DNA of 64,000 nt from positions 43,746,507-43,810,506 of the forward strand of contig CM050449.1 in the NCBI GenBank assembly GCA_027563935.2, given 5' to 3'. This stretch comes from Costus lasius. Its lineage: Eukaryota; Streptophyta; Magnoliopsida; Zingiberales; Costaceae. Of the stretch, positions 34-62,763 are shown in pieces; position 1 is the first letter of the stretch, and each line of letters opens with the position of its first letter. The position numbers and the translations under genes were made by a program. The notes under the pieces were generated by a model, which had not been told where the DNA came from, searched no databases, and saw only the letters and a program-made list of their open reading frames with translations.

Positions 34-1724
34 ACTTGCGAGCCTCGAACGATGTTCTTTCATGCTTTTCATGCTCACATGCCATATCTACATTTTCGCA
101 TATTGCATAGATGTTGGCGCATGATTTTTCTTTAAGTAGAAAAATTGTAGGTCTCTTGTTTCTTACTTCTAATTAACTTCTTGTGGTTCTTTGCTCTCTT
201 CATGTGATGGGATAGACCCATACGTGGAAGAGAAAATTTCTCCTCTCATAATAGGATAGACCTATCTTGAGAGACTTGTTGGAATAGGGCATGGACTGGG
301 TGATTGCCCTTATCCTAGCAAGTTAGGGATTGCAAGGAGGGCAACCGGTATGCCTCTTGTAGACTCCTGAGAGAAACTTAGAATCAAAGATTTGTGATAT
401 GAAGGGAAGGAAGAGAGACATGTTTTATGAAAAAGTAAAATTTCAGATTTTATGTTTTTCATGAGCATATAGAATTGCATGAGTAAGTACTTGATTATGC
501 ATGATGTTGTGGTCATATATCAAGCCCCTTAACATGCCTGTGATGTATCCTTGTGAGGCCTGCGTGCCGCTTTTCTTTTTGCTTTTAACTAACAAGAAGA
601 TTAGATGGCGCATCTACTTGGAGCAAGGTGCATGCTTGCTTGGTTGCGCATCCTTGCATGATGGCGCAACAATCTTCAAAGGTGGCACATCCTTGCATGG
701 GGGCGCAAGTTAGGGTTTGGCCGAGCCTTGTGCTTGTGTGCTATCCCTCTTGTGGCTTGCTAAATGGCGCACCTTCCTTGGAGGAAGACCATGGCATTGG
801 CCGAACCTTGTGGGTATACCCCTAGGGTTTGAGAGCTAAACCATGGGAGAATGACCTTGGAGCCAACCTTGAAGATAGAGCTAGAGGTCGGCTAGGCTAG
901 GTCTAATCTTGGGGCTTGAATCCTAGGTCAAGAGTTGAACCCCTTTTTGGCATAGATTGGTTCAATGTCTTGAATGGGCTATGATCACATCATCCTTTTA
1001 TTGCTTTCTTTACAAAAGCTAAAGCATGCCTGTGATGTTTTATCGTTATGTTATCACCATAGGATTGCATGCCTGTAATGATAGACATAAGATAAAACTG
1101 AGATGATGGGACCTTAAACAAAAACCCTCAATTAAAATATCAAGTCTAGTAGCCTTCTAACGCGTAGCCCTCACTAAGCTATCGATCAGTGGAGTTGTGA
1201 ACTGTTTCCCACCCTCGTGGGACACACCCACTTATCTTTAGAAAGTGCGTGGTGGCAATGGTTTCCCCAGTCCAGTTTTAACCTGGGCGTGCCTTCGCAA
1301 GGAAACTCGTTGGCCCTAGGCATAACGGTTAGGAATGGACTTGACTAGATTTTCATGTGTGCTAGGCACATGATGAAACTCTAGAGGCATCGTTGAGAGG
1401 TTAGGGTTTCATGCTGTATCCAGCCCTCGCTGGACATGAAATGCCTGGACTGTCTCAATAAGGGGAATTGCTTGGAGCAATCGGCCGGCGCGCCCACCTT
1501 AGGAAACATGGGTCACTTTGTGCATCTCATCCCACCCTCGTGGGACACGAAGCCCTGTGTGGAATGAGGATCTCATCTCACTAGGAAATCTTGGATTTCT
1601 CGATTGACTTTGTGGGTTGTCAATTCGATTAAAAATAGTGGGAGCCATGGTCATTTAAAAGGCAAGTCCAGTTTAAATGACTCGAAGTAGTACTAATCTG
1701 CTGTTTCTTGGTTGTTGTAGAACA
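34..1724 (+). promoter_or_regulatory. Copia A untranslated leader with three-hairpin array
   Basis: This is a leader of about 1.7 kb without a credible coding region. Three short stem-loops lie in its 3' third: 1208-1221 and 1531-1544 (both CCCAC, loop CCTC, GTGGG) and 1420-1433 (CCAGC, CCTC, GCTGG). The first two extend outward across a single mismatch into TGT/ACA-type pairs. Equivalent hairpins with different but complementary stems occur in elements B, C, E and F at almost the same spacing. The leader ends in a pyrimidine-rich TTGTTGTAG just before the gag ATG, which resembles a splice acceptor. The part at 600-830 is a run of short GGCGCA and CATCCTTGCATG words. The small ORFs at 501-825 look accidental. 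Confidence 0.75.
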
Positions 1725-5585: not shown

Positions 5586-8198
5586 TGTCACATCCCCTCA
5601 GAATAAACCCCAATCACAGACAGAAACCGCAGAAGATAGGGAACGTCACACACAAAACAACAAGACAGATGCTAGGGAATGATAGCTTACGGAAAAAGAT
5701 TCGGAAAATTTCGGCAGCATGTCCCCAGAAAAACTAAGGAAATTCCTGTACATGCTCCATAAACAAAAACTGAAACATACCATTTCGAAATCAAAATTCT
5801 TAATCCTTATCACAACATCAAACTAATAAATCACAATAATCAAATAACACTGAACAAAATAGAATTCACCGAAAACAGGCTTAAGCCCTCGGTTTAACAG
5901 TCGTATCAAAACCAAATGCCAACCCGGCAACAATATCACAGTAGTCGAAAACTAACAGCCACATCCGGCTAACATGTCAATGAACAAAATCATAAAAACC
6001 TCGGCCACATCCGGCCCTCAAAATAGCACAGGCTCGCAGGCCCCAAAATATCAAGTCAGAAAACTAAACATCCGCTCACGCTGTAGGCTCCTGTCCTGCA
6101 TCTGGAAATATCGTGGAATGAGCTACACGGCTCAGTGAGTAGATAGTCTCGTTCGACCATCCACTAATATACAATCAAAAATAGATGCAGATATCTTTTC
6201 AAAGCTTTTAACGGAATATGTCAAAGTATGATACATAAGAAAACCGATAACCATAAATCACAATCATGATCAGAAAACAATACACCCACAACCTCGGGCA
6301 ACCAGACACAAAACAGCCTATCCGGCTAACAGACTAAGGATTACACAACTAATGTCCAGTGATTCAGAATTGACCCCAAGGGTCCAACCTGGCCCTCGTA
6401 AAGGCACTGAGAGTAACTTGCAACAAACCATGGTGAGGCGTAGATTCAAGAGGTGGCCCCCCGCCAGGTCACGACGTGGCACTTTGCTCTACGACACTCA
6501 ACCGCACCCCCTTACCGGGAACACAAACAGAACAGAACGGAAGGTGAATGAATTCAAGAGGTGGCCCCCGTCTGACCAAGACGTGGCACTTTATTTCAAA
6601 CACCCAACTCTCAAAAGGTTTATCACTTGGACAAAAATACCCTTAACACAAACCGGAAACCTGAACCTCTAACCTGGTCACTAGACTCTAGAACAGTCCC
6701 ACCATTACTGGAAACAAATCGGAATAGGTTGGGTGGATTCTCCAACCCCAAATCAGAATGACTGTTCACTGAGTGCTCTAATTGACCCTTAGGTTCAGTC
6801 CACCCAAGTCTAGGACCCTTATCGAGTGCATACAACACAAACATTGTCTCGAACATCACATCAATCAAGTTCAGGAAAGGTCCTTAAATTTCATGCAAAC
6901 ATGGTTTAACCTTTTCTAAGTTATCATCCAAGGTTATCAATCAATATTTCACATCAATACTTCCTACATACACCATTTAACTAAAAATACATATTAATAC
7001 CAAAAATTCACCAAATTTCATCCGCAGATAACATAAATACAGGAAATCACAAAATCATAGTTTTCTCCTAGTTCTTATAACAAAAGACAGAAATGCCCCT
7101 AGTTCAAAATTTAAGTCATGCAGGAAAACTTATCCAAAAATTTTGTAAAAATAGTCATTACATCCCTCATGATCCTTAGATTCCTAATTTCAAGTTTTCC
7201 CCCAATTTAACTAGAAAATTTACCGAATTACCCCTAGGTCAATTTCAGTCAACAGAAATTTTTATTTCCAAAAATTCCCCAAAAATAACGGTAGAGTCCT
7301 CATATACCTAATTTCATGAAAATCAGGTTTGCCCCAATTTTTACCCATACATTTGGGAGCAATTTCATGAAGAAGGCGAAATTCTCAATTAAGCCCTAAT
7401 CTTCATGTAATTGAATGTTTAAAGCCACATACATGTTTAATCAAGGTCTAATTGATGATTAGAAGTCTTAGAGATGAAAAGCCCTAATTTTTATGCAAAC
7501 TAGGGTTTCAAAATTTAGGGAAAAACAAAGAAACGTGTACAACTTGAAATCAAGAGTTCATGTCATCTCTCTAGCATTAATCTTCTCTAAATCAAGCAAC
7601 ACTTCCAATATGCGTGAACTAGGTGAAAGAGAAGATCCACTCACTTTGATTTCGGTTCTTCCAAACCTCACGCCCTCACGCCTCCCTTCACGCCACTCAC
7701 GTCGCCGGAAGCAAACGCCGGAAGCACAAAAGTCACCGGAAACCGCCTCCACCACCACTCGCCGCCGGCCACAAGAAGAGGAGAAGGGAGGAGAAGGTAA
7801 GCCGCCCCTTCACCCTAGGGAAAAATCGTGAGAAAAAGGGAAAACGTGTGAACATGGATCCCTCACGATTTCGTTTACCCATCAAGCCTCCCAAGAATCC
7901 AAACCCAATAGCAAGCATTAGTGGAAGATCCAATAACCCTTTAGTATAAGTTATTCTCCACCTCACCCTTATCAAGGGCTCTTACCCTTTTTTAATAGAT
8001 AAACACCACTAGCCAAGTGGTGTGCAGCACACATTTTACGCCTTAAGTCGCAGGTTCGAATCCTCTCCGCGACACATATTTTTACATCGCAGGAAAAATA
8101 CATAAGTCAATACATTACCTCATTGAAAAACTTCCACAACAAAGCTAGATAAACAAAATTTTATTTTCTTACCTGCTATTAAATTTCTGGATCTTACA
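5586..8198 (-). repeat. G1 3' LTR
   Basis: This 2613-bp LTR lies on the left because G1 reads on the minus strand. It matches 32184-34797 along its whole length with only scattered differences, for example one base in the CTCGTxAAGGCAC word near 6400 and 33000. That indicates an insertion much younger than copia A. It contains a conserved GGTGGCCCC/GACGTGGCAC pair repeated at 6450-6590 and a tRNA-like module near 8010. The ORFs at 6352-6868 and 7493-7975 recur as fragments in every G1/G2 LTR, overlap on both strands and have no recognisable domain. I do not regard them as genes. Confidence 0.9.
8005..8080 (+). other. tRNA-like Pol III module in G1 left LTR
   Basis: An A-box-like TAGCCAAGTGG (8010-8020) and a B-box GGTTCGAATCC (8053-8063) lie 43 bases apart, within the tRNA range. 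The B box sits in a hairpin closed by GTCGC/GCGAC and is followed by a T run (about 8078-8083), a possible Pol III stop. The module runs opposite to G1 transcription and recurs at the same place in the three other G1/G2 LTRs. It is probably a captured SINE head, not a tRNA gene: there is no acceptor stem or proper anticodon arm. Confidence 0.6.
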
Positions 8199-8211
8199 TT
8201 CCTTCCCCCTT
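8199..8211 (-). other. G1 polypurine tract
   Basis: Read on the minus strand this is AAGGGGGAAGGAA, directly adjoining the 3' LTR start TGTAAGATCC. A matching tract occupies the same position in G2 at 51254-51267. Confidence 0.8.
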
Positions 8212-8227: not shown

Positions 8228-9334
8228 CTAAAGCTCACCACCCAAATCATCGAATAGCTGAGGGAACTCTCTTCTCATATTTGACTCTGACTCCCAAGTA
8301 GCTTCTTCGACTGACTGGTTTCCCTAGATAACTTTTACAAGCGGTACTGTCTTGTTCCTTAGGACTTTGTCTTTCCTATCCACAATCCTCAGTGGTCTCT
8401 CTACAAAGGTCAGATCACTCTGGATCTGCAGGGGATCAGAATCAAGCACATGAGATGGATCTGCACAGTATTTCCTCAGAACTGACACATGAAATACATT
8501 ATGAAGATGCTCCAGAGATGGTGGCAGAGCTAGTCTGTAAGCTACAGGACCAACCCTCTCTACAATATCGTAAGGTCCAACAAACCTCGGGCTCAGCTTT
8601 CCCTTCTTGCCAAACTGCATGACACCCTTGGTTGGTGAAACCTTCAGAAACACATGATCCCCCACCATAAACTCTAAGGGACGACGACGATCATCTGCAT
8701 AACTCTTCTGCCTGTCCCGAGCAACCTTCAATTTTTCCTGGATAACTCTGACTCTATCTGTAGCCTCCTGTACAGCCTCTGATCTCAGAATCATCCGGTC
8801 CCCCGATTCCTCCCAACTCAGAGGAGACCTGCACTTCCTGCCATACAGAGCCTCGTACGGAGCCATCTGAATACTGGAGTGAAAGCTGTTATTGTAGGTG
8901 AACTCTATCAGGGATAAATCACTGTCCCACTCAGAGCTCCAATCTACAACATAAGCCCTCAGCAAATCCTCCAAAGTCTGTATAGTACGCTCTGACTGAC
9001 CATCTGACTGCGGATGGTAGGCGGTACTAAAACTCAACTTAGTGCCAAGACCCTCATGCAAGCTCTTCCAGAATCTGGAAAGGAATCTGGAATCGCGGTC
9101 TGATACAATATCCATAGGCACTCCGTGTAATCTGACTATCTCGTCGATGTACAGCTTAGCCAGCCGATCGAGTGGATAAGTCATCCGAATAGGCAAAAAG
9201 TGTGCACTCCGTGTAATCTGACTATCTCTACGATGACCCAAACCGCATCATGCCCTCTCCTGGTCCGAGGCAACCTACAAACAAAATCCATACTAATGCA
9301 CTCCCACTTCCACTGCGGGATAGGGAGCTGCTGC
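8228..9334 (-). pseudogene. G1 integrase core and chromodomain-like tail, broken
   Basis: On the minus strand it begins in the integrase catalytic core (HFLPIRM, then the D in VSDRDSRFL, then GQSER). It passes the C-terminal integrase region and ends in a chromodomain-like tail (PLVKVI to EEATW), with its stop at 8228-8230. A TAG at 8324-8326 replaces a Trp codon (CTGG to CTAG) inside the tail and would remove most of the chromodomain, which in chromoviruses is thought to direct insertion. At 9204-9235 a foreign 32-base stretch, copied from 9118-9149, replaces normal core sequence. The upstream coding part is displaced by copia B. Confidence 0.85.
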
Positions 9335-9338
9335 AATA

Positions 9339-11037
9339 TGTTGGGTCCCCTTCAAGGGGGAGCGCAAACCCTAAGCATGCATAATCTAAGAACTAGCATG
9401 AGCGGAATTAGGGTTTCAATAGATCGCATGAAGTATATCTATATGATCAACTTTGTTTGCTTATCAAGATCAAGAGAAGATCTAGAAGATCTCACCATGG
9501 CCATGATTTGGACGGCGCCTTGGAAGCAAGAGGGCGAAAAGGCTCTCCTCCAAAGAAGACACACACAAGGGATGAAGACTTACTCCTTGCGCAACTCTTG
9601 TGCTAGCAACAATTGCCAAGATGTCCTTTGTGTTGAGGAGATGAGATGATAGCTCCTTCTTGGCCGAAAGCTCTTCTTTCTCGTCAACCACACTCTTACT
9701 CCAAAGAGCAAAAACGGCGACAAGACAAGAGAGACAAGCGTTTTGGGCGTTATGGCGTTACAAGACTTCCCTATTTGGAAAGTCATCAAGACATGCGCTT
9801 ATGTCTTGAGAACCAAATCAAAACGCCAATTCAATTCGAACCATGCGTTCACATATGTGAACCGGTTCAATTGAATTCGGTCCAATCTCATTTGGTTTAA
9901 GAACCAAATTGAACCAAGCCAAGCCATGGTCTAAATCTCATATGAACCATGAAGGTTCAAGATCTAACCACACATCTCATGATGCTCTTGATCTCACCGA
10001 TCTAGCATCAACACTCTCGATCGAAGCTTACCGATCTCAAGCCCTAATCAATCAAACATGATCAGACCAGATCTCACTTACAATCAGAGTTTAAACTCCT
10101 TTAAACTGAATCAAAACAATCCAGTCCACACGATCTGACTCAAGTAAGCCATATCACCAAATTGTGCGACCCTGAGGGTTTCCTTTAAATGTCGATAACG
10201 ATAACTCACGTTATCACAATCAGTGAGGGGTATCTAGCAACACATCACTGTCTCCTGATATAAAGGAAAGAGTCTTCCAAGACTACACCCAAATCACAGC
10301 ACAAGTGTGAATCCACTTCACAAGGCATACATGTTTCCTTTGCCACTGGATGTTCTTATTGGACAAGCATGTCAAGCCTGTAACTCCAATATGATGAGCA
10401 TGATTAGATCAGATGATCACAGTCATCTGGGTATGGCCATACACTTTCTCAATCATCTCATATAGGGGGGCCCCTTTTAGAACATCACACTCCTTGAACA
10501 AGGAGACGGCAATCCTATATCTATCACTAGTGCCCTAACCTGACTCATGATCATTATCCAAGACAGTCTATAATCATTATGTTTCAAATGATATTGAACT
10601 ACCTCAAAACAATGACAATCATCATTTAGAAACACAAGTGATCTCAAGTCAGAGGACATGTGCCACTTGGTGCTTACAAGGATCATTCACATTGTGACAA
10701 GCAATGGAATATCCTAGTAGGGTCAGTCCAGTACATCCAATGTACCCATGAGTCTACATCTTATTCCATGCTCGAAGCATCCTATAAGATTAGAACACAT
10801 ATTAGTCTCAATCATATCAAGGCTGTCTCATGTTCACCAAGATATCTCGACTAAGGACATATGCATGTCAGCCTAGCTGAACTGCGTTGAGACATTATTC
10901 AGAAGAACACACATTGCAGCAGATGATGTAACAATCTGAATAATAACCATTGCCTTTTATAAACATGATAGTTTATACAAATGATACTGTTACATTCCCA
11001 AGGCCTCAAACATTAGCCTTAAGGGCATACCCCAACA
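9339..11037 (-). repeat. Copia B 3' LTR
   Basis: It is 1699 bp long. On the minus strand it opens TGTTGGGGTATGCCC (ending at 11037) and closes GGGGACCCAACA (9339). It differs from the partner LTR at 16811-18509 by isolated bases, for example near 9509, 9744 and 10843. Small ORFs here (9200-9900, 10477-10854) recur in the partner LTR and have no known domain. Confidence 0.92.
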
Positions 11038-14942: not shown

Positions 14943-16796
14943 GGTGTTCGTTGCTGCAGGTATCTACAACAATGCAAGAACAGCAAGGTCAGTATCAATG
15001 TCTAGAATCAATCCAGGACTTAAGAAAGATTCTTTTTCTCACTATTTTATCTGACTGAAAAATCCATTAAACAGTCCCAAAGAGTAACACTCTTTTAGTG
15101 AGATGGGATCCAGATTTCATACTTGGTCTCCGCGTCTCGCTCAGGCGAGATAAGATACACAGAGAGTACAAGCACTAATCTCTGGTAGGCTGTCCCAGCC
15201 AATCGCCAACCCGTGCGATTCCCCTTCATCTGGGCAATCCAGCAGACTGTGCCAACTGAGTTGGTACAACACAGTCTCTGACCCCACAGATGGCTGCCTC
15301 CATGTGCTGCCATATGCGCCACATATGCAGCCTACATGGTCAAGCTGACCCGACCTACTCCCTGGACCACCATGTGCTATGCTGAGCAACGAGAAGCGAT
15401 AAATCCCTTCTCTGTAACACGCAGGTGTAATCCAGCACCGTCTGAAGATAGATGGACGTGCCCACTGAGTGGGTACAACACGACTCCAACGATAGTCAGA
15501 ACAGTGAGGTTTCGCGTCAGAAGGCTTACGAGCTTGATATTTTAGCGTTTGGATTTTAACGGTCTTTTATCTTCTTCACTATCATGCAATTCCTATGGTG
15601 ATAGCAGAAGATAAATAAATCATGCTGTTCTACTTATTCTAACAATAAAAGAAAGCATGGATCTTATGTGGTAAAAGCCCATAGCCTAAGTAAGACCTTA
15701 AGATACTTAAGTCTTCACTTGCATCTCTTTATGGGTCTTTAGCTCATTAGGTCCATCCCAGGGCCCTTGCGCCAAATTCAGCTCAGATGCACCCACCAGC
15801 TGAATGCGCCTCTGCGATGTGTGCTCTTGTCTAATCAAAATACATTTTGATCTATCTAGACTATCTTGACTCGCAGGTCAATTATACAATAAATAAATTA
15901 AAATTGTGATTCGCAGATCACAAAATAATTATTTACAATTTACCAGGCTCGCAGGCCCCAGCACAGCACACATTAAAAGGGCATCCCACATAAGATGAAA
16001 TAAACATGCATCATGGCATCAAAAACAACATGTGATCCATAGACAAAGTAAAATTTTTCAAAATCCCATTGGAATCAATTTTAGTTGTCTTATGTGTCCT
16101 ACTACCTTACAACGGTCCATTAGTAGGGATCCACTCATCCAGCTAGTCAGATCCTCTGCCCTTGCATGCACCAAGTCCTAACTGACTCGAGTTGACCTAA
16201 TGGTCAACCATGCATGCTACAAGGGCTGAACAACCCTCATGAGTTCTGGCAAGCGGGTGTGACCCCGGGCCTAACTCATGTGTGTTCAATAGCCGTCTCA
16301 ACCAGACCTCGCTACACGCCCTTGATGCAGTCAACCTATAGCCACCTCATGCTTGCGCACAGGTGCTATCAGGTCAACCCATCTAGGCTGTCAGATGGTC
16401 TGATCAGACTAGTTGGATCTTCCCTAGAGGATGCCTTCAACCCTACTAACCCGTCTAAGGGATTATAGCAGGCGCCACTTAGATCTATGGTGATAGGCGC
16501 GCAAGATGTAAGTTTTTGTAGAAAAACAACTACAACAAGCACAAACAAGTAACATGCGCCACTATGATAAACAAGATACATCAAATATCTAGCATGTCAA
16601 TCTTTGCATGTTAATAAACCAAAGATCTAGGCATGAGCGCAAACTTCTCCAAGCAATGATACAAGCGCAAACAAACTTATGTGCTCATAACCTCATGTAA
16701 GCGCAAGAAAACAAAGCATGAAGGGAGCGCAACAAAGCATCATGAGTGGATCACAATTTCAGCAAAGCAATCATATAGATCATACCGAAAACAAAT
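14943..16796 (-). promoter_or_regulatory. Copia B leader with three-hairpin array
   Basis: This is the untranslated leader between the PBS and gag. Hairpins on the minus strand: 15461-15473 (CCCAC, loop TCA, GTGGG), 15252-15264 (CCAAC, TCA, GTTGG) and 15135-15150 (TCTCGC, CTGA, GCGAGA). The first two continue across an A-C mismatch into TGT/AC pairs. A pyrimidine-rich TTGTTGTAG precedes the gag ATG. Compared with C, about 56 bases are missing near 15805, between two copies of AGGCGCAT. ORFs at 15095-15545 lie over the hairpins and look incidental. Confidence 0.75.
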
Positions 16797-16809
16797 GCTC
16801 CGATACCAA
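16797..16809 (-). other. Copia B primer binding site
   Basis: Read on the minus strand this is TTGGTATCGGAGC, one base inside the LTR end. It fits the initiator tRNA-Met 3' end with one change (CGG instead of CAG). Confidence 0.85.
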
Positions 16810-16810
16810 T

Positions 16811-18509
16811 TGTTGGGTCCCCTTCAAGGGGGAGCGCAAACCCTAAGCATGCATAATCTAAGAACTAGCATGAGCGGAATTAGGGTTTCAATAGATCGCA
16901 TGAAGTATATCTATATGATCAACTTTGTTTGCTTATCAAGATCAAGAGAAGATCTAGAAGATCTCACCATGGCCATGATTGGATGGCGCCTTGGAAGCAA
17001 GAGGGCGAAAAGGCTCTCCTCCAAAGAAGACACACACAAGGGATGAAGACTTACTCCTTGCGCAACTCTTGTGCTAGCAACAATTGCCAAGATGTCCTTT
17101 GTGTTGAGGAGATGAGATGATAGCTCCTTCTTGGCCGAAAGCTCTTCTTTCTCGTCAACCACACTCTTACTCCAAAGAGCAAAAACGGCGACAAGACAAG
17201 AGAGACAAGCGTTTTTGGCGTTATGGTGTTACAAGACTTCCCTATTTGGAAAGTCATCAAGACATGCGCTTATGTCTTGAGAACCAAATCAAAACGCCAA
17301 TTCAATTCGAACCATGCGTTCACATATGTGAACCGGTTCAATTGAATTCGGTCCAATCTCATTTGGTTTAAGAACCAAATTGAACCAAGCCAAGCCATGG
17401 TCTAAATCTCATATGAACCATGAAGGTTCAAGATCTAACCACACATCTCATGATGCTCTTGATCTCACCGATCTAGCATCAACACTCTCGATCGAAGCTT
17501 ACCGATCTCAAGCCCTAATCAATCAAACATGATCAGACCAGATCTCACTTACAATCAGAGTTTAAACTCCCTTAAACTGAATCAAAACAATCCAGTCCAC
17601 ACGATCTGACTCAAGTAAGCCATATCACCAAATTGTGCGACCCTGAGGGTTTCCTTTAAATGTCGGTAACGATAACTCACGTTATCACAATCAGTGAGGG
17701 GTATCTAGCAACACATCACTGTCTCCTGATATAAAGGAAAGAGTCTTCCAAGACTACACCCAAATCACAGCACAAGTGTGAATCCACTTCACAAGGCATA
17801 CATGTTTCCTTTGCCACTGGATGTTCTTATTGGACAAGCATGTCAAGCCTGTAACTCCAATACGATGAGCATGATTAGATCAGATGATCACAGTCATCTG
17901 GGTATGGTCATACAATTTCTCAATCATCTCATATAGGGGGGGCCCCTTTTAGAACATCACACTCCTTGAACAAGGAGATGGCAATCCTATATCTATCACT
18001 AGTGCCCTAACCTGACTCATGATCATTATCCAAGACAGTCTATAATCATTATGTTTCAAATGATATTGAACTACCTCAAAACAATGACAATCATCATTTA
18101 GAAACACAAGTGATCTCAAGTCAGAGGACATGTGCCACTTGGTGCTTACAAGGATCATTCACATTGTGACAAGCAATGGAATATCCTAGTAGGGTCAGTC
18201 CAGTACATCCAATGTACCCATGAGTCTACATCTTTTTCCATGCTCGAAGCATCCTATAAGATTAGAACACATATTAGTCTCAATCATATCAAGGCTGTCT
18301 CATGTTCACCAAGATATCTCGACTAAGGACATATGCATATCAGCCTAGCTGAACTGCGTTGAGACATTATTCAGAAGAACACACATTGCAGCAGATGATG
18401 TAACAATCTGAATAATAACCATTGCCTTTTATAAACATGATAGTTTATACAAATGATACTGTTACATTCCCAAGGCCTCAAACATTAGCCTTAAGGGCAT
18501 ACCCCAACA
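16811..18509 (-). repeat. Copia B 5' LTR
   Basis: It is 1699 bp, the same length as the left copy, with TG...CA ends. The target duplication CAATA follows at 18510-18514. It should hold the element's promoter; I could not place a convincing TATA box. Confidence 0.92.
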
Positions 18510-18658
18510 CAATAATCCCCCAGGCCTCTGGTGTTCAGCCTTCACAGTCTGACAGGTCAAACACCGAGATACGAACACCGCGACCTCCTTCTTCATGCCC
18601 GGCCACCAGAAATCTTTCTTCAAATCCTGATACATTTTTGTGACTCCGGGATGCAAGG
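18510..18658 (-). pseudogene. G1 integrase zinc-binding fragment
   Basis: About 50 codons on the minus strand encode [20 protein letters not shown] and the CLTCQ motif. This is part of the HHCC zinc-binding region of gypsy integrase, and it is nearly identical to G2 at 51773-51923. It continues the G1 coding sequence interrupted by copia B. It ends abruptly at 18655-18658, where the four bases AAGG are shared with the truncated LTR of copia C. Confidence 0.88.
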
Positions 18659-20321
18659 CTAATGTTTGAGGCCTTGGGATTATTTCAGTATCATGTATAA
18701 ACTCTATGTTTATAAAGGCAATGGTTGTTATTCAGGTTGTTACATCATCTGCTGCAATATGTATACTTCTGAATAATGTCTCAATGCTGTTCAGCTTGGC
18801 TGACATGCAGTTTTGTCCTTAGTCGAGATATCTTGGTGAACATGAGACAGCCTTGATATGATTGAGACTAATATGTGTTCTAATCTTATAGGATGCTTCG
18901 AGCATGGAATAAGATGTAGACTCATGGGTACATTGGATGTACTGGACAGACCCTACTTAGGATATTCAATTGCTTGTCACAATGTGAATAATCCTTATAT
19001 GCAAACAAGTGGCATATTTCCTCTGACTTGAGATCACTTGTGTTTCTAAATGATGATTGGCATTGTTTTGAGGTAGTTCAATATCATTTGAAACATAATG
19101 GTTATAGACTATCTTGGATAATGAGCATGAGTCATGTTAGGGAACTAGTGATAGATATAGGATTGCCGTCTCCTTGATTGGAGTGTGATGTTCTGAAGGG
19201 GCCCCCTGGATGAGATGGTTGAGAAAGTGTATGGCCATACCCAGGTGACTATGTTCATCTGATCTAACCACTCTCATCATATTGGAATTACAGGCTTGAC
19301 ATGCTTGTCCAATAAGAACATCCAGTGGCAAAGGAAACACATATGTCAAGTGACTTGGGTTCACACTTGTGCTGTGGTTTGGGTGTAGTCTTGGAAGACT
19401 CTTTCCTTTATATCGGGAGATAGTGATGTGTTGCTAGATACCCCTCACTGATCGTGATAACGTAAGTTATCGTTACCGACATTTAAAGGAAACCCTTAGG
19501 GTCGCACAATTTGATGATATGGCTTACTTAAGTCAGATCGTGTGGACTGAATTGTTTTTGGTTCAGTTTAAAGGAGTTTAAACTCTGATTGTAAGTGAGA
19601 TCTGGCCTGATCATGTTTGATTGATTAGGGCTTGAGATCGGTAAGCTTCGATCGAGAGAATTGATGCTAGATCGGTGAGATCAAGAGCATCAAGAGATGA
19701 ATGGTTAGATCTTGAGCCTTATGGTTTAATTTGATCTAGACCAAGGCTTGGTTTGATTTGGTCCTTGAACCAAATTCAATTGAACCAGGTTCATCAAATG
19801 AGCGCTTGGTTCAAGGGAGAAGAAAATGCGATCGTTCACTTGGAGTGAACGCATGAACGCATGATGTTAGTGGCTTGCTATTTTTGGAAGTTATGTTTTT
19901 CCAAAATAGCGTGAACGCCTCCACATTCGTTCGTGGGTGCATCTCTTTTCGCCTCTCCCTCTCGACGCCTCTCTCTCGTGTGGTGAGACTTCACGCAAAG
20001 GAGAAGAGGACTTGACAAAGCCAAGAGATCATCTCAATCTCCTTCACGCGATCAGGAGACCTTGGAGCTTTGCTAGCACAAGGAACGCCAAGGGAGTAGT
20101 CATCTTCACCTTGTGTGCGCCACCTTTGGAGGAGAGCCGCTCGCCCTCTTCTTCCAAGACGCCATCCAAGAAATGGCATTGGTATGATCCCCTTCTTGAT
20201 CTATACAAATTGTTAAGTTGATCTATGTTCATACATGCGATCCTAGGAAACCCTAGATTCCGCCCATGCAAGTTTTTATATGCGCATGCTTTAGGGTTTC
20301 GCCCCCTTTAGGGAACTTTCA
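18655..20321 (+). repeat. Copia C 5' LTR, 5' end missing
   Basis: It is 1667 bp long. It joins its 3' partner at the AAGGCTAATG word (26081) and lacks the preceding TGTTGGGGTATGCCCTT. It ends GGGAACTTTCA at 20321, right before the PBS. The ORF at 19937-20221 recurs in the other LTR and has no known domain. Confidence 0.9.
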
Positions 20322-20336: not shown

Positions 20337-22140
20337 ATGGTTCCTTGTATGATTCATATGATTGCTTATATGTGATCCTTGTTTGCGCTTAAGAGTAGAT
20401 CTAAATTTTATCATCATGCGAAACTACATGCTAGTTTGCGAAAATAGATGTAAGTTTATTACTTGTTGGCGCATGCATGATGATTGGCGCTTGTTGAATG
20501 GTTTTTCTCAAAACATTACTTGCGCGCCCCTCATTAGATCTAAGCGCCTACTTCAAAAGCTTAGACGGGTTATTAGGGTTGAAGTCATCGTCCAGTCTAG
20601 ACCCGACAGTCTGATCAGACCATCTGACAGCCTAGATGGGTCGACCAGATGGCACCTATGCGCAAGCATGAGGTGGCTATTGGTCGACTGCTGAAAGGCG
20701 TGTAGCGATGTCTGATTGAGACAACCAGTGAACGCTCATGATTAAGGCCCGGGGTCACACCTGCTTGCCAGAACTCATGAGGGATGTTCAGCCCTTCACG
20801 CATGCATTGTAGACCATGAGGTCGACTCAAGTCGGTTAGGACTTGGTGCATGCAAGGGCAGTGGGTCTGACTAGGTCTGATGAGTGGATCCCTATTAATG
20901 GACCGTTGTAAGGTAGTAGGGCACATAAGGAAATAAAATAAAGCCAATGGGTTTTTCGAAAAAAAAAAATTTTCTTGATTGGATCACATGATGTTTGTAT
21001 AACATGAATGATTGTCTATTTAATCTTATGTGGGCTGCCTAAATTTAATGTGTGCTGTGCTGGGGCCTGCGTGCCTGGATTATTATTTGTAAATTATTAT
21101 TGTGATCTGCGCATCACATTTTAATTAATTTATAAAGTGTAATTGACCTGCGTGTCAATCATGTCTAGATAGATTAAATTGTATTTTAATCAGACATGAG
21201 CACAGAGCACACTTGGCAGAGGCGCATGCAGTAAGTGGCTTCACCAGTGGGAGGTCTAGAGTTCGACTCTAGGACAGGCGCATTTTACCTGGTGGGCGCA
21301 TCTGAGCTGCAGTGGGCGCTTGGGCCCGGGTTGGGCCAGAGGAAATGCTAAAGACCCATGAAGAGCTCAAGTGAAGACTTAAGTTAATTAAGGTCTTACT
21401 TAGGCTTAATGGGCTTTTACCACATAAGATCATCATGCTTTTAATTTACTATTTAAGTAATTTAATAACTGCATGATTTATTCTTCTACTATCACCATAG
21501 GGTTTGAATGATAGTAAGAAGATAAAAGGACCGTTAAAATCCAATGTTAAATATCAAGCACGATAGCCTTCTGACGCGAAACCTCACTGTTCTGACTATC
21601 GTTGGGGCCGTGTTGTACCCACTTAGTGGGCATGCCCATCTATCTTCAGACGGTGTGTGATTACACCTGCGTGTTACAGAGAAGGGATTTATCGCTTCTC
21701 GTTGCTCAGCATAGCACGTGGTGGTCCAGGGAGTAGGTCGGGTCAGCTTGACCATGTAGGCTACATATTGAGCATATGGTAGCTATATGGAGGCAGCCAT
21801 CTGTGGGATCAGAGACTGTGTTGTACCAACTCAGTTGGCACAGTCTGCTGGATTGCCCAGATGAAGGGGAATCGCACGGGTTGGCGATTGGCAGGGATTG
21901 CCTACCAGAAATTAGTGCTTGTACTCTCTGTGCATCTTATCTCGCCTGAGCGGGACGCGGAGACCAAGTATGAAATCTGGATCCCATCTCACTAAAAGAG
22001 TGTTACTCTTTCGGGCTGTTTTGCTGGATTTTTCAGCCAGATAAAATAGTGAGAAAAGAATCATTCTTAAGTCCTGAATTGATTCTAACATTGATACTGA
22101 CCTTGCTGTTCTTGCATTGTTGTAGATTACTGCAGCAACG
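20337..22140 (+). promoter_or_regulatory. Copia C leader with three-hairpin array
   Basis: This is a leader of about 1.8 kb. Hairpins: 21618-21630 (CCCAC, loop TTA, GTGGG), 21826-21838 (CCAAC, TCA, GTTGG) and 21940-21955 (TCTCGC, CTGA, GCGGGA, with one G-U pair). Spacing is 208 and 114 bases, close to the other copia elements. At 21220-21283 two AGGCGCAT repeats flank a 48-base stretch absent from B that contains a B-box-like AGAGTTCGACTC. The leader ends with CATTGTTGTAG (acceptor-like) about 20 bases before the gag frame. Confidence 0.75.
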
Positions 22141-25100
22141 AACACCACAGCGTTCAATGTGCGATCCCTACTGGAAAGGGAGAAGTTTGCTGGGCCAAAC
22201 TTCTCAGACTGGTATGGACACCTTAAGATTGTTCTTAAGGCTGAGAGGAAACTGTATGTCCTCGAGACGGCTATACCGCCTCAACCCGCTGCGAACGCCG
22301 CAAGGGCGGTTCGGGAAGCTTATGAAAAGCATGTCAATGACAGCATTGACGTCGCTTGCCTTATGCTAGCGTCTATGACGCCAGAGCTTCAGCGTCAGCA
22401 TGAGGATTTATCAGCTATAGAAATTATAGCAAACCTCAAGATGCTATATGCTGCGCAGGCAAGGACTAAACGCTATAATTTGACGACACTTTTCTTTCAG
22501 AGCAAACTGACTGAAGGGAGTCCAGTGGGAGCTCACGTGCTCAAGATGATTGGCTACAAGGAGGCTCTAGAGAAACTGGGACACACCATCAATCAGGAGC
22601 TTGTTGTAGACATCATCCTGCAGTCTCTCCCGGCCTCTTTCGATCCGTTCATTATTAATTTTAATATGAACAAGATCGACTGTACGCCGGCAGAGTTGCT
22701 GAACATGCTCATGACTATAGAGCAGACTCAGTCTCGTGAGAAGGGAACGCCTTCATCCTCTGTCCTAATGTTTCTTTCTAGGAACAAGAAGAAGGGGAAG
22801 AAGGGCAAAGCCCCTATCAAGAGCTACAACAAGGCTCTAAAGCAAAAGATAAAGCGGTCGAAGGAATACAGATGTTTCCATTGTGGCCAGTTAGGTCACT
22901 GGAAAAAGGACTGTAAAGCGCTCCAAGGAGATAAGAAGGGAAGCAAGCCTTTCGCTTCTGGCTCAGGTATTTACGTGACTGAAGTCATGGTATCTTCTTC
23001 TTCTATTTCATGGGTGTTGGACACTGCATGTGGAGTTCACATTTGTTCAAATGTACAGGAACTCAAGAGAAGAAGACAGGTGGGACAGCATGAGGTGGAC
23101 CTACGAGTAGGAAACGGGGCACGGGTTGCTGCTGTTGCTGTAGGAGTTTATCACATCTCTTTACCATGTGGTCTTGTATTAGAACTGGACAATTGTTATT
23201 TTGTACCGAGCATAACTAAGAATATTATCTCTATTCCTGCTCTTGTCAGGAAAGGGTTTTCCTTTGAATGCAAAATTTCAAAGTGTTATATTTCTTTTGA
23301 TAATATTGTTTATGCTACTGGGTCAATTAACAATGGGTTATTCATGTTGGACATGGAATGTTCTATACAGCAGATTGATATTAAGAAAGCCAAGTATGCT
23401 GATGACAGCACCTTGCTATGGCATAGTCGTTTAGGCCATATTAACAAGAAGCGCATTAAGCGGTTGCATGACCATGGACTGCTGGGATCATTCTCCTATG
23501 AGGAGCTTGATACATGCAAAGCTTGTTTAATGGGCAAAATGACGAAGTCTCCTTTTTCCAACAAAGGTCAAAGGGCTTCAGGTTTACTTGACCTCATTCA
23601 CAGTGATGTGTGTGGGCCATTTAGTAAACATGCCAGAGGTGGCTATTCATACTTCATTACCTTTACTGATGATTTCAGTAGGTATGGTTATGTCTATCTA
23701 ATGAGACATAAGAGTGAATCTTTTGACAAGTTCAAAGAGTTCAAAAATGAAGTACAAAATCAGCTAGGCCGAAATATCAAGGCACTTCGCTCAGATCGAG
23801 GTGGAGAATACTTGAGTAATGAGTTTACTGACTATCTGAAGGAGTGTGGGATTATCTCACAGCTCACTCCGCCAGGAACACCGCAATGGAATGGTGTGTC
23901 CGAGAGGAGAAATAGAACCTTACTGGATATGGTTTGTTCTATGATGAGTCAGGCTACTCTACCTTACTCCTTTTGGGGATTTGCACTGGAAACAGCTGCA
24001 AAGGTACTAAACCGAGTGCCATCCAAGGCCGTTTCAAAGACTCCATATGAGTTATGGTATGGGAAACAGCCGAGCTTGACATTTATTAAGATCTGGGGTT
24101 GCGAGGCTTATGTCAAAAAGCTCGCCTCTGGGAAACTAGAGAGCAGATTTGAGAAATGTATCTTTGTCGGTTACCCTAAGGAAACTAAGGGTTATTATTT
24201 CTACGATCCCAAAGAGAACAAAGTATTTGTTGCTCGGACGGCTATTTTTCTTGAGAAAGAATTTCTTCTGGAAGAAGCCAGTGGGAGAGAAATAAAGCTG
24301 GATGAGAATCCAGAAGAAGGACAAAGTAGTCAAGCACAGTTGGATGAGCCTGAGCCAGTAGATCAGGTTACTGAACAACCTGAGGCTCAGATATCACGGG
24401 AACCGCGAAGATCGGGAAGGATCCGTCGACAGCCTGAGCGCTATGACGGAGTCTACATCATTGATGATGAACCCCTCACTTATGCGGATGCGGTCAGTGG
24501 ATCGGAATCAGCGAGATGGCTTGAAGCTATGCGAGCCGAGATGGACTCCATGTTAGATAACCAAGTTTGGGATTTGGTTGATCCGCCTCCGGGAGTAATC
24601 CCTATAGGCTGTAAGTGGATCTTCAAGAAGAAGATTGACATGGATGGTAACGTGGTTACCTATAAAGGCAGGCTAGTTGCGAAAGGTTTCAAACAAATCT
24701 ACGGGATAGATTATGATGAAACTTTCTCTCCTGTAGCCATGTTCAAGTCTATTCGGATTATTCTTGCGATAGCGGCATATTATGATTATGAGATCTGGCA
24801 AATGGATATGAAGACCGCTTTCCTTAATGGAAAATTAGAGGAGGATGTGTATATGACACAACCTGAAGGTTTCACTAATCCATCAGATCGTCATAAAATA
24901 TGCAAATTAAAGAAGTCCATTTATGGACTTAAACAAGCATCAAGAAGCTGGAATATTCGTTTTGATGAATCAATCTGTGAATTTGATTTCATCAAGAATG
25001 AAGATGACCCGTGTGTATATAAGAGGTTTAGTGGGAGCGTGATTACTTTCCTAGTCCTCTACGTCGATGATATCTTAATCATTGGAAACGATATTCCTGA

Positions 25101-37078: not shown

Positions 37079-38572
37079 CTACAATAAGCAAATAAGTAAA
37101 ATAAGTACTATGATAAAGCATTTATCAAGGACTTTAAATTAAATGCTATGCTCCCACTACTTCCAAAACAAGTTGAGAACTCTCAAACTCAACATGGAAA
37201 TAAGTGAGTAGGATCCTAATTTCACATGAGGTCTCCGTGACTCACGAGGGTGAGTTGGGATGCACAGAGAATCCCATGCTTCCTTAGGTAGGCATGCCAG
37301 CCAATTGTGCCGTGCACAACTCCTCTTAGTTAAGACAGTTAAGACAGACTAGGCGCTCTATTTCCAACAAGGGCTGGATACAACACAGAACCCTATCCTC
37401 TCAACAGTTGCCTCTAGTGATTCATCATGTTAGTGACATATGAAAACTAGTCAAGTCTGGTCCTAACCGTTATGCCCAGGGCCAACGAATTTCCTTACGA
37501 AGGCACGCCCAGGTTAAAATTGGACTGGGGAAATCATTGTCACCACGCACCTTCTAAAGATAAGTGGGTGTGTCCCACGAGGGTGGGAGACAGTTCACAA
37601 CACCACCGATCGATAGTTTGATGAGGGCTACGCATTAGAAGGCTATCGACTTGATATTGTATTGAGAGTTTTTGCATGTTTGTTTTATTCTTTTCTAGCA
37701 TGCAGTTTTCCTATGGTTATGGCAGCAAAGGAAAAACATCACAGGTATGCTATGGACAAAATAATAAACCATCACAGGCATGCTAGTTTGGTCGATATGG
37801 TCATAGCCCTTTTCATACACATAACTTGTCACGAGCCATGTGACATGTTATCGTGAATCCAAGGGTTCCGAGTCCCTAAAGCAGATCAGCCCATGCTAGA
37901 AGCCGAAAGCATGTGTCCTTCCTTCCGCCGCAAGTCCATCACCACGCTTCCAAAGCTGGCGCCACTTCTGACGTCGATTGAAGAAGACTCCTTGTTGTCA
38001 AGATGAAGCCTTAACCTATCATATAATTCTACATCTATTCTAAACAAGATGAAAAATTTTTTACAACAAGATAGGGAGAGAACCACACGCAGGTGGAAAG
38101 AGATTTTACAAGCATTCATCACAAGTGGAAACATTCTTCCACATCACAACACAGGAGGGCACTCGCTATGACCATATCAACCTAATCAAGTGGCGCATGT
38201 AAAATTTGAAAATCCAGAAAAATCAAATTTTAGCACCTTATGCGCCAACATCATCCAAAGCACTCTCTTAACTAAATTTATGCCAAAATTTAGATCAAGT
38301 TCCATGATGATTTCATAGACCCTATCGGCTGGCAGTTTTGTCAGATCAAGAGACCTGGCCAGTCCGAAGACACAATGTCCGTCCTACTTGACAAAACCAC
38401 GTGCACCTTTGGTTTTAAATCAATCATAAACAAAATCCAAGTTTCGGCCACAAAGATGAGAAGAGAGGTCTGGATGAAAACGCTTTCTACGTGAAACGCG
38501 CATGGATAGAAGAAAAATTTTCTAAAAAACTTTTCACACAAGCAAACGTACACCTTGTGTTTCTCGCAAGTA
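37079..38572 (-). promoter_or_regulatory. Copia F leader with three-hairpin array
   Basis: This is an untranslated leader on the minus strand. Hairpins: 37574-37587 (CCCAC, loop CCTC, GTGGG), 37364-37377 (CCAGC, CCTT, GTTGG, one G-U) and 37241-37254 (CTCAC, CCTC, GTGAG). Spacing is 210 and 123 bases. The leader ends in TTGCTTATTGTAG directly before the gag ATG, acceptor-like as in the other copia elements. Nothing else is evident. Confidence 0.72.
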
Positions 38573-41550: not shown

Positions 41551-43157
41551 TGATCTACAACAACCAAGATAACAAATTAGTACTACTTCGAATCATTTAA
41601 TCTGGACTTGCATTAAATGATCATGGCTCCCACTATTTTAATCGAATTGACAACCCACAAAGTCAATCGGGAAATCCGAGATTTCCTAGTGAGATGGGAT
41701 TCTTGTTCCTCACATGGCCTCGCATCCCGCTAGGGCAGGATGTACTGCACGAGGTGACGCATGTATCCCAAGGTAGGCGCGTCGGCCAATTGCAACTTGG
41801 CAATTCCCCTTCTCAAGACAGTTCAAGCATTTTGTGCCTAGCTAGGGCTGGAACAACACAAAACCCTAACTTCTTGAGGCTGCCTCTAGAGTTCCATCAC
41901 GTGGCCACCACATATGAAAAACTAGTCAAGTCTATCCTGACCGTTATGCCTAGGGCCAACGAATTCCTTGCAAAGGCGCGTCCAGGATTTTAATTGGACT
42001 GGGGAAAACATTCTCACCACACGCCTCCTAAAGATAGATGGGTGTGTCCACTAGGGTGGAAACAATGCACAACCCTGTCGATTGATAGTTTGACGAGGGC
42101 TACACGTCAGAAGGCAATATCATACTTGATATTATTTTCAGGGTTTTTGAGGTCTCATCCTCTTAGTTTTATCTTTTGTCTAACATTACAGGCATGCAAT
42201 CCTATAGTGATAACAAAATGATAAAACACATCTAGGCATGCTTTTGCAGAAAAGGAAAGCAGTAAACAAGCGATGTGGTCATAGCCTAATCAACACATTG
42301 AACCATCACATGCCAAAGGATGTTCAATGCTTAACCTAGGTGACAAGCCCCGACAACACCTAACCTAGCCGCCACTAAGCTCTATCTTCAAGTGCGGCTC
42401 CAAGGTCCTCCACACCAAGGCATAGCACACAAATCATAGGGTTTGGCCAAGACCTTGATGGCTCCTCCATACATGAAGTGCCATCATGCTTGTGCTAATA
42501 GGGATAGCTCACGAACCCTACGGTTCGGCCAAGCCCTTACTTGCGCCACCAAGCAAGATGCGCCATCATGGTTGATGCGCCAAGATGTAAGCTTCAAGAG
42601 GGATGCGCCCTTAATCTTCTTTGTGCGTTTACAAAACAAAAAGAACAAGCGGTAGGCAGGCCTCACACAGAATACATCATAGGCATACAAGGGGCTTGAC
42701 TATGACCATAACACGATGCACAATCATCTCATGCTTTTCTATATGCTCATGAAAACATAAAACTTCAGTTTTAGTTTCTTTAGAAAACATGTTTTTCAAC
42801 CTCAACGTCCATTCGCAAATCTAGGATTTTTTGTTTCTCTCGGGAGTCTACAAGTGGCGCATGCATGCTCAAAGCACACTTGCCGCCTACCCTTGCAATC
42901 CTTAACTTGCCAAGAAGTCCCACACAGTAGGTCTATCCTACATGTGTGGGGAGAAATTAATTCTCTCACATATGGGTCTATCCCACCATGTGAAGAAAAT
43001 GAAAAACCAAAGAGATCGAATAGATGTTAGGAACGAAAAACTTGCAATTTTTCTTACTTAGAAAAATCCATGCGCATATGCAAATTTTCTAAAAATTTCA
43101 TATAGCACATGTGAGCATACAATCAAAGCATAAAACACCGTTTGAGTTCGCAAGTTG
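41551..43157 (-). promoter_or_regulatory. Copia E leader with three-hairpin array
   Basis: This is a leader on the minus strand. Hairpins: 42047-42060 (TCCAC, loop CCTA, GTGGA), 41837-41851 (CCAGC, CCTA, GCTAGG with one extra A) and 41724-41741 (ATCCTGC, CCTA, GCGGGAT). Spacing is 210 and 113 bases. Stems differ from A by paired changes. TTGGTTGTTGTAG precedes the gag ATG by four bases. ORFs at 41694-42221 and 42443-42690 lack domains. Confidence 0.75.
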
Positions 43158-62125: not shown

Positions 62126-62763
62126 GATGTAGGAGAGAGCCATGTCTACCACACAAGGGCCGTCCGGACATGTATGTCTGCCTCACAAGGGTCGTCTGGA
62201 CATAAGCGACCCATGCCTGCCTCATTCGGCGCGTCTGACATGTTCACCCCCCTCCCCTACAACACTAAGGACCGGCGGAGCTCCACCGATCCCCTCGAGG
62301 TTAGGCATCCCAGAGACCTAACCCGCAAGGTCCAGGGTGTCGAATCCTGGCACAGTTATACCCCATGCCTGGGCTGTGCAAATTTCGTCTACAGCAGGAT
62401 TCGAACCCTCGACTTGGCCTTCACAAACCAAGTCCCTCTAACCATTAGAGCTGGGACTTGGTTTGTGAAGGCCAAGTCGAGGGTTCGAATCCTGCTGTAG
62501 ACGAAATTTGCACAGCCCAGGCATGGGGTATAACTGTGCCAGGATTCGACACCCTGGACCTTGCGGGTTAGGTCTCTGGGATGCCTAACCTCGAGGGGAT
62601 CGGTGGAGCTCCGCCGGTCCTTAGTGTTGTAGGGGAGGGGGGCGAACATGTCAGACGCGCCGAATGAGGCAGGCATGGGTCGCTTATGTCCAGACGGCCC
62701 TTGTGAGGCAGACATACATGTCCGGACGGCCCTTGTGTGGCAGACATGGCTCTCTCCTACATC
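62126..62763. repeat. 638-bp near-perfect inverted repeat with tRNA-like core
   Basis: The arms are 62126-62436 and 62453-62763, each 311 bases, with a 16-base spacer. Only a few mismatches were seen (for example near 62157, 62189 and 62245 against their partners) and no length difference. From the centre outward each arm reads TGGTTAGAG-like or AGAG, then GACTTGG...CCAAGTC, then GGGTTCGAATCC: a D-arm, an anticodon-like arm and a B box, as in a tRNA or tRNA-derived SINE head. The element cuts off the RT of H. No target duplication was seen at the outer ends. ORFs at 62152-62500 and 62389-62715 are the two arms and not genes. Confidence 0.9.

What the first reader, a model, noticed from the sequence alone, without database searches (positions are those of the whole stretch)
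1208..1544. Three-hairpin array with compensatory stem changes in the leaders of five copia elements
Each copia leader here carries three short hairpins upstream of gag, at near-constant spacing (first to second 208-212 bases, second to third 111-123). Positions: A 1208, 1420, 1531 (plus); C 21618, 21826, 21940 (plus); B 15461, 15252, 15135; E 42047, 41837, 41724; F 37574, 37364, 37241 (last three minus). Stems vary while pairing is kept: hairpin 2 is CCAGC/GCTGG in A and CCAAC/GTTGG in B and C; hairpin 1 is CCCAC/GTGGG in A, B, C and F and TCCAC/GTGGA in E; hairpin 3 is CCCAC/GTGGG in A, CTCAC/GTGAG in F, TCTCGC/GCGAGA in B and ATCCTGC/GCGGGAT in E. Hairpins 1 and 2 share a further design: a single mismatch, usually opposite C, then TGT paired to ACA or a near form. 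Loops are CCTC, CCTA, CCTT or TCA/TTA/CTGA. Paired changes in diverged elements imply selection on RNA shape. Packaging, dimerisation or translation control are candidate roles (inference).
Basis: partly seen in the sequence, partly recalled or inferred. Interest (0 to 1): 0.87.

Follow-up and report, generated by a model that had tools for sequence, protein, structure and literature searches.

The report
Folded RNA leader of plant retrotransposons
The stretch of RNA just before the first gene of a very abundant plant jumping element keeps an elaborate folded shape while its letters change, and three look-alike hairpins in it may be the handles by which the element's own coat protein picks up its genome.

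Summary
They belong to something larger. The last ~580 bases before gag hold at least nine hairpins at the same alignment columns in four or five of five diverged copia elements.

Leaders number in the tens of thousands in the unnamed 1.28-Gb genome (36,400 matches to one 15-base motif, backward control 4). In 12 chosen representatives the shared fold far exceeds a tree-preserving null (-84.5 vs -20.3 sd 4.7 kcal/mol; 59 compensatory pairs vs at most 31). With the fold of element A alone, double changes keeping a pair number 33 on internal branches against 3.3 expected; branches after insertion show much less.

Against: an unguided covariation test supported no helix; hairpin 1's inner stem is weak; a gag-coding control also exceeded the null, far less.

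Each hairpin reads best as a bulged stem-loop, not as mismatch plus TGT/ACA. Most likely role: a packaging (Psi-like) domain with three copies of one Gag-binding site. That is inference; translation control and RNA export remain open.

The parts
1137..1720 (+). Element A: structured leader domain, up to the last base before the gag start region
1184..1236 (+). A hairpin 1: outer stem 1184-1199/1223-1236, 5' bulge, inner stem 1207-1212/1217-1222 (inner stem weakly supported)
1345..1384 (+). A hairpin between h1 and h2, ~17 bp, with quite different letters in B/C but still paired
1392..1459 (+). A hairpin 2: long stem 1392-1413/1435-1459, 5' bulge, inner stem 1419-1424/1429-1434
1467..1481 (+). 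A hairpin between h2 and h3 (ATTGCT/AGCAAT)
1497..1569 (+). A hairpin 3: basal 1497-1501/1565-1569, middle 1506-1512/1554-1560, outer 1516-1522/1546-1552, 7-base bulge, inner 1530-1535/1540-1545
   Evidence: inner stem; outer stem
1576..1643 (+). A closing helix 1576-1583/1636-1643 around two hairpins 1584-1600 and 1601-1627
1649..1682 (+). A last hairpin; AAGTCC in its loop in 10 of 12 representatives
1715..1720 (+). A TTGTAG, 3'-splice-site-like end of the leader, 4 bases before the gag ATG
21551..22125 (+). Element C: structured leader domain
21813..21846 (+). C hairpin 2 with outer stem and 5-base bulge
21925..21963 (+). C hairpin 3 with outer stem and 7-base bulge
14964..15540 (-). Element B: structured leader domain (h2 15244-15277, h3 15127-15165)
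41555..42132 (-). Element E: structured leader domain
37079..37657 (-). Element F: structured leader domain (h3 37232-37270)

Best explanation
Shown by computation: the last ~580 bases of the leader, between primer-binding site and gag, form a conserved folded RNA in a large copia family. Stems change by paired changes on the branches where elements replicate, and much less so on the branches that mostly record decay after insertion. Shown by inspection: h2 and h3 are versions of one unit, which h1 resembles: an outer stem whose inner end is usually GUG/CRC, a bulge of 4-7 bases on the 5' side, a 5-6-bp inner stem and a 3-4-base loop. Inferred: the domain is a packaging signal of the genomic RNA. 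The three units are repeated binding sites for one protein, most likely Gag, whose preference shifts between lineages, so that the three loops tend to change together. The neighbouring helices space and present them. Unspliced RNA with the folded domain would be packaged into particles.
For: Consensus fold of 12 representatives -84.5 kcal/mol vs -20.3 sd 4.7 in 200 tree-preserving nulls, 0 as low; compensatory pairs 59 vs 16.9 sd 4.6, maximum 31. Fold of A alone, path to A excluded, 100 nulls: internal-branch changes keep the pair in 63.6% vs 43.4 sd 2.4; kept double changes 33.1 vs 3.3 (null maximum 10), broken doubles 5.8 vs 3.6; terminal branches 56.7% vs 48.0 sd 2.0. Folds of E, F and C point the same way. 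RNAalifold tool on 22 sequences: 22 of 37 pairs have both sides changed and still paired in at least one sequence. Sense strand folds better than antisense: -84.5 vs -72.4, covariance term 14.6 vs 6.5. Changes from Watson-Crick pairs on internal branches give G.U 62.5 vs A.C 35.8 times (binomial p 0.009). Loops are alike within an element: CCTC in all three in 34 of 99, TCA/TCA/CTGA in 30. The place between PBS and gag is that of retroviral Psi (recalled); BARE2 is said to have conserved packaging signals (PMC3735527, passage, place not given there).
Against: No experiment and no binding data. The unguided covariation test named no helix. Hairpin 1's inner stem: 1 double kept, 2 single kept, 3 broken on internal branches. 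The same null is exceeded by a gag-coding control too (12 sequences z -4.8, 5 sequences z -2.5, no null of 100 as low in either; leader z -14.1 and -9.2), so z values are inflated. The antisense leader also far exceeds its null (z -12.0). The strand test against terminal branches is not significant (p 0.41), and both strands beat their shuffles. Twelve leaders not used for the consensus support the fold only moderately (71% vs 63% for slid pairs, p 0.03; doubles 20 of 27 vs 26 of 60, p 0.01). The h1-h3 loops are not self-complementary, so no kissing-loop dimer signal is visible there. Loop concordance rests on few independent lineages and has exceptions.
Confidence: 0.5

Rival explanations
1. 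Translation control: the folded leader lets ribosomes reach gag past many upstream ATGs, by internal entry or shunting.
For: Leaders hold 37-52 ATGs against 28-36 expected from composition, so plain scanning is unlikely. Plant pararetrovirus leaders with short ORFs and structure control translation (PMC5902531, start of abstract in the listing).
Against: The fold is a string of separate hairpins rather than one large hairpin. Element C and some relatives have no ATG where B starts gag, yet C is young. Compared with B under C's fold, changed pairs kept/broken are C 9/0, L062 8/0, L060 8/1, L074 9/2, L092 11/5, L072 16/14; C is the source of the fold, so this is biased, and L072 does not support it.
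Confidence: 0.2
2. RNA export or stability element, like the MusD transport element or the leader of cauliflower mosaic virus, bringing unspliced RNA out of the nucleus.
For: Such elements are structured and act in export of retroelement RNA; the cauliflower mosaic virus leader of about 482-608 bases recruits export factors (PMC12786077, passages). A 3'-splice-site-like end in all five elements would make export of unspliced RNA a problem to solve.
Against: No match to any Rfam family. Splicing itself is not shown.
Confidence: 0.15
3. DNA-level inverted repeats: binding sites of host transcription factors or enhancer palindromes, as proposed for Sirevirus repeated motifs.
For: Inverted repeats with short spacers; both strands fold better than shuffles and than the tree null; Sirevirus palindromes are known (PMC2829016, passages).
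Against: A binding site keeps its letters, whereas stems here change letters and keep pairing. The sense strand folds better. Bulges lie mainly on the 5' side (4-7 bases against 0-1).
Confidence: 0.06
4. Artefact of relatedness, conserved blocks or selective reading of hairpins.
For: Unguided test negative; gag control above the null; stems of the five elements were first picked by eye.
Against: Effect is about three times that of the control in z. Folds taken from one element alone predict change on branches not leading to it. Slid pairs lose the excess of double changes.
Confidence: 0.04

Closest known systems
BARE1/BARE2 of barley (Ty1/copia, Angela lineage)
   Same: Copia element with untranslated leader and one ORF; BARE2 is said to have conserved dimerisation and packaging signals, lacks the gag start and is packaged (PMC3735527, passages). 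Long LTR and long leader: recalled.
   Different: The passages read give no leader structure, hairpin array or covariation, nor the place of the signals. BARE1's known intron lies in gag, not in the leader. Lineage of the present elements was not tested by a tree.
Ty1 TIPIRT domain of yeast
   Same: Folded 5' RNA of a copia-superfamily element needed for packaging, dimerisation and reverse transcription (PMC5454406, abstract).
   Different: Ty1 uses a pseudoknot in the first 326 bases and kissing hairpins; here a string of hairpins about 1 kb or more after the primer-binding site, no self-complementary loops in h1-h3.
Retroviral Psi (HIV-1, MLV, MMTV)
   Same: Structured leader RNA that recruits Gag/NC (starts of abstracts in the listings; place between primer-binding site and gag recalled).
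   Different: No Rfam match; function untested.
Sirevirus repeated palindromic motifs
   Same: Repeated short palindromes in non-coding parts of plant copia elements (PMC2829016, passages).
   Different: Those mostly have a CGG-CCG core and lie by the envelope-like gene and in the 3' LTR; they were read as possible transcription signals.
Cauliflower mosaic virus leader; MusD transport element
   Same: Structured leader or RNA element of a retroelement used in export (PMC12786077, passages).
   Different: Architecture not compared in detail; no Rfam match here.

Membership tests
Retroelement packaging domain (Psi) | Lies on genomic RNA between primer-binding site and gag | tested here: met
   PBS-like site at 21 (A), 20324 (C), 16808 (B), 43169 (E), 38584 (F), with 0-2 mismatches; domain ends at gag. 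That the transcript carries it is inferred
Retroelement packaging domain (Psi) | Conserved secondary structure with compensatory change | tested here: met
   unguided test negative
Retroelement packaging domain (Psi) | Bound by Gag/NC and needed for encapsidation | not testable with these tools
   needs binding or particle data
Retroelement packaging domain (Psi) | Dimer initiation by self-complementary or kissing loops | tested here: not met
   loops of h1-h3 (CCTC, CCTA, TCA, CTGA and kin) are not self-complementary; loops of other hairpins not tested
Ty1/copia retrotransposon | Single gag-pol ORF with integrase before reverse transcriptase | tested here: met
   Pfam order in B and C
Angela/BARE lineage | Clusters with Angela in RT, RH and INT trees | not tested
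   only anatomy: LTR ~1.67-1.70 kb (B, C), leader 1.5-1.85 kb, tRNA-Met type PBS (recalled match)
Sirevirus repeated motif | Palindrome with CGG-CCG core near the 3' LTR | tested here: not met
   core absent from h1-h3, position in the 5' leader
Any Rfam 15 RNA family | Covariance-model match | tested here: not met
   0 matches in the window at gathering score, 0 in 1-1800 at E up to 1
Leader intron | 3' splice site before gag | tested here: inconclusive
   TTGTAG intact in 92 of 97 leaders; internal-branch changes 0 (5.7 expected) in the A/E/F clade, where 2.6% of 6-column windows are as quiet, and 0 (1.3 expected) in B/C, where 42% are; TACTNAY-like motif upstream in the five elements; no RNA data
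Leader intron | 5' splice site at a shared place | tested here: inconclusive
   no site shared by the five elements among the best eight of each (position weights recalled)

The most novel reading that the evidence does not exclude
The folded domain is an intronic packaging signal in a plant copia element. A 3' splice site lies directly before gag, so splicing would remove the domain from gag mRNA and leave it only in the genomic RNA that Gag packages through three equivalent hairpins: the arrangement of retroviral Psi, in a copia element, and in tens of thousands of genomic copies that record its evolution.
Probability: 0.2. Interest if true: 0.85.

Novelty: new variant of a known kind. Interest (0 to 1): 0.62.

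Why it matters
How plant LTR retrotransposons choose their own RNA for packaging seems little known: a 2025 review on host factors of their life cycle has no occurrence of 'psi' or 'dimeriz' in its main text (PMC12786077, word counts; I saw passages only). A leader fold supported by compensatory change gives defined stems to test, and the family supplies thousands of natural variants in one genome. The contrast between internal and terminal branches is a general way to see selection on retrotransposon RNA.

Tried and rejected
Unguided all-pairs G-test with tree null (60 nulls), 44 A/E/F-clade sequences: one pair below E 1 (1279-1283, 75% canonical, four columns apart), next E 2.75 (1174-1243); no support for any helix of the model; not run on B/C or all lineages. 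Relatives in viral contigs: a gag piece gave none; two leader motifs hit one contig each, both without any leader around. Rfam: none. Kissing loops: no self-complementary loop in h1-h3. Pairing of the loop AAGTCC with GGACTT near 1337: fits A by eye, not C or L011, dropped. A 9-base spacer in one genome pattern was my error and sampled a minor subfamily; two regions (L067, L069) were cut on the wrong side by my error and dropped. Test for copies lacking the leader exactly at TTGTAG (would show splicing): asked 16 times, never answered. Literature: seven full-text searches of the open PMC library (lists of 11-20 papers each) showed me no paper on leader structure of plant copia elements; one search found 0 papers, one search was on Ty1. 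Papers: passages of PMC3735527, PMC2829016, PMC12786077, PMC6317226, PMC4974528; abstract and outline of PMC5454406; all others search listings only. The BARE2 paper that PMC3735527 cites for packaging signals was not read.

Full report
What is there. The window holds five copia elements or parts of them. C (LTRs 18655-20321 and 26081-27746) and B (LTRs 16807-18509 and 9334-11037) have LTR pairs 99.2% alike, so they are young. A, E and F are incomplete in the window or interrupted. Pfam finds the copia order gag, zinc knuckle, integrase, reverse transcriptase in B and C. The genome is held without a name: 1,278,925,522 bases. The best named relatives of C's reverse transcriptase piece are from Hibiscus sabdariffa, 78%, so the host is probably a eudicot (inference). 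Leaders are very numerous: a 15-base motif of the domain has 36,400 exact matches against 4 for the pattern read backwards; two other motifs have 9,541 with up to 1 mismatch (control 0) and 30,907 with up to 2 (control 1).

Check of the observation. All 15 hairpins are present with the spacings given. Folding leaders alone gives h2 and h3 with an outer stem and a bulge on the 5' side in A, B and C, and h3 so in F, among many more hairpins (E was lost there by a cut error, its fold is used). Stems listed for each element alone fall at the same alignment columns at nine places, each in four or five of the five elements. Examples: the hairpin at A 1601-1627 is ATTGAC/GTCAAT in A and E, GTTGAG/CTCAAC in F, GGCTG/CAGCC in C and GACTG/CAGTC in B; the hairpin at A 1467-1481 is ATTGC/GCAAT in A and E, AATCGC/GCGATT in B and C.

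Sampling. I fetched 40 of the 100 places listed (partly chosen for variety of motif), 33 of the 100 listed (20, 13) and 27 of the 100 listed (chosen from those not in the other two lists), all on contig C1, plus 8 loci given, one of which (L003) is element A itself. All 108 align to one of the five leaders. 14 were dropped for incomplete cover. With the five of the window this makes 99, 97 of them distinct: 59 in the A/E/F clade, 38 in the B/C clade.

Tests. (a) Twelve representatives that I picked from the tree (mean identity 0.72), sequence-only alignment, RNAalifold with span up to 120, against 200 null alignments in which the substitutions of each branch are moved to random columns: -84.5 against -20.3 sd 4.7, lowest null -37.0; covariance term 14.6 against 2.5 sd 1.2; pairs with compensatory change 59 against 16.9 sd 4.6, maximum 31. 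Non-canonical cells are also more (103 against 61), with more pairs predicted (144 against 64). (b) The same, with 100 nulls, on gag-coding sequence of the same 12 elements: z -4.8, 15 pairs, 7 compensatory against 2.0; five window elements alone: leader z -9.2, gag z -2.5, compensatory pairs in gag 41 against 23.9 sd 4.6. No null was as low in either gag control. The null is therefore not neutral, but the leader stands far outside the control, whose sequences are also more diverged (mean identity 0.55 against 0.72). The antisense leader gives z -12.0. (c) Fold of one element alone, changes counted on the tree without the branches leading to that element, 100 nulls: internal branches keep pairs in 63.6% (A), 63.7% (E), 60.3% (F) and 44.7% (C, in the B/C clade) against nulls of 43.4, 44.9, 45.5 and 29.6; each exceeds its null maximum. 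Double changes that keep the pair number 33.1, 24.4, 10.5 and 2.0 against 3.3, 3.1, 1.7 and 0.1. Terminal branches, mostly decay after insertion, keep 56.7, 53.4, 49.5 and 46.2% against 48.0, 48.6, 47.8 and 38.8; only A exceeds its null maximum there (54.6). (d) Pairs slid by 1-3 columns lose the excess of double changes. (e) Twelve leaders not used for the consensus: of singly changed pairs 163 kept, 67 broken; doubly changed 20 kept, 7 broken; six slid controls on the same sequences pooled 423 of 674 and 26 of 60. One of them, L083, has 20 single changes kept and 21 broken. (f) The RNAalifold tool on 22 sequences over h2 to h3 (two of 24 picked could not be placed): 37 pairs, 22 with both sides changed; one pair of the h2 stem occurs as UA, CG, GC and UG. 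That consensus holds h2 and the inner stem of h3, not h3's outer stem, which I think the gaps of the alignment hide.

Results against. The unguided covariation test on 44 sequences found no helix. Hairpin 1's inner stem has as many breaking as keeping changes on internal branches (3 against 3). The strand comparison is mixed: sense folds better in the consensus, and Watson-Crick pairs change to G.U more than to A.C on internal branches (62.5 against 35.8; p 0.009), but not significantly more than on terminal branches (p 0.41), and both strands beat shuffles.

Anatomy of the unit. h2 and h3 share one plan, seen in 82 and 91 extracted units, and h1 resembles it: outer stem, bulge of 4-7 bases on the 5' side against 0-1 on the 3' side, 5-6-bp inner stem, 3-4-base loop. 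For h3, 40 unit types covering 87 of 91 units were printed; in 35 of the 40 the seven innermost positions of the outer stem all pair. Loop letters tend to agree within an element: CCTC three times in 34 of 99, TCA/TCA/CTGA in 30; minor lineages show CCTA (E) or CTTA (L071) in h1 and h3, or CTCC/CTCC/TTCC (L013). There are exceptions (for example L081: CCTC, CCTA, CCTC), and the number of independent lineages is small, so I call this suggestive.

Function. A fold kept by paired change on internal branches and held less on terminal ones is what a cis-acting signal of the replicating RNA would show. Its place between primer-binding site and gag, and three look-alike bulged hairpins, fit repeated binding sites for Gag. 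Yeast Ty1 has a folded packaging domain at its 5' end (PMC5454406, abstract), and BARE2 is said to have packaging and dimerisation signals (PMC3735527, passage). I put packaging at 0.5, translation control at 0.2 and export at 0.15. Binding, packaging and probing were not testable here.

A further lead. Each of the five leaders ends in TTGTAG directly before gag, with a TACTNAY-like motif upstream. 92 of 97 leaders keep TTGTAG and no internal branch changes it, which is unusual in the A/E/F clade (2.6% of windows) but not in B/C (42%). The leaders carry more ATGs than expected. Both would make sense if the leader were an intron, but no shared 5' splice site was found and the genome search for leader-less copies did not complete. 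Element C and six B/C-clade relatives lack an ATG where B starts gag, and in C the frame is open without one for 79 codons; intact copies exist. How these copies keep the fold is mixed and biased by taking the fold from C (figures under the translation rival).

Noticed in passing
1715-1720, 22120-22125, 14964-14969, 41555-41560, 37079-37084: TTGTAG with an upstream TACTNAY-like motif ends every leader of the window right before gag, like a 3' splice site.
   Followed up: partly
22126-22370 and loci L060, L062, L072, L074, L092, L095: No ATG at the gag start used by B-type copies, although C has 99% identical LTRs and an open frame; possible parasite of intact copies, as BARE2 is of BARE1. Some F-like copies (L015, L038, L042) also lack one at the usual place.
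   Followed up: partly
62126-62763: Near-perfect 638-base palindrome (97.7% to its own reverse complement).
   Followed up: no
29839-31507: Solo LTR-like copy of the B/C LTR next to a gypsy gag-pol fragment.
   Followed up: no
5586-8204, 32184-34803, 48598-51253, 55163-57820: Four copies of a 2.6-kb LTR-like repeat beside gypsy genes, in two close pairs (98.4% and 99.4%); the first copy appears to interrupt element A's 3' LTR.
   Followed up: no
37330-37347 (element F): Short tandem duplication beside hairpin 2 (CTGTCTTAA twice).
   Followed up: no
1217-1231 (element A): The 3' arm GTGGG of hairpin 1 could also pair with a CCCAC just downstream: a possible switch (listed for A and F).
   Followed up: no
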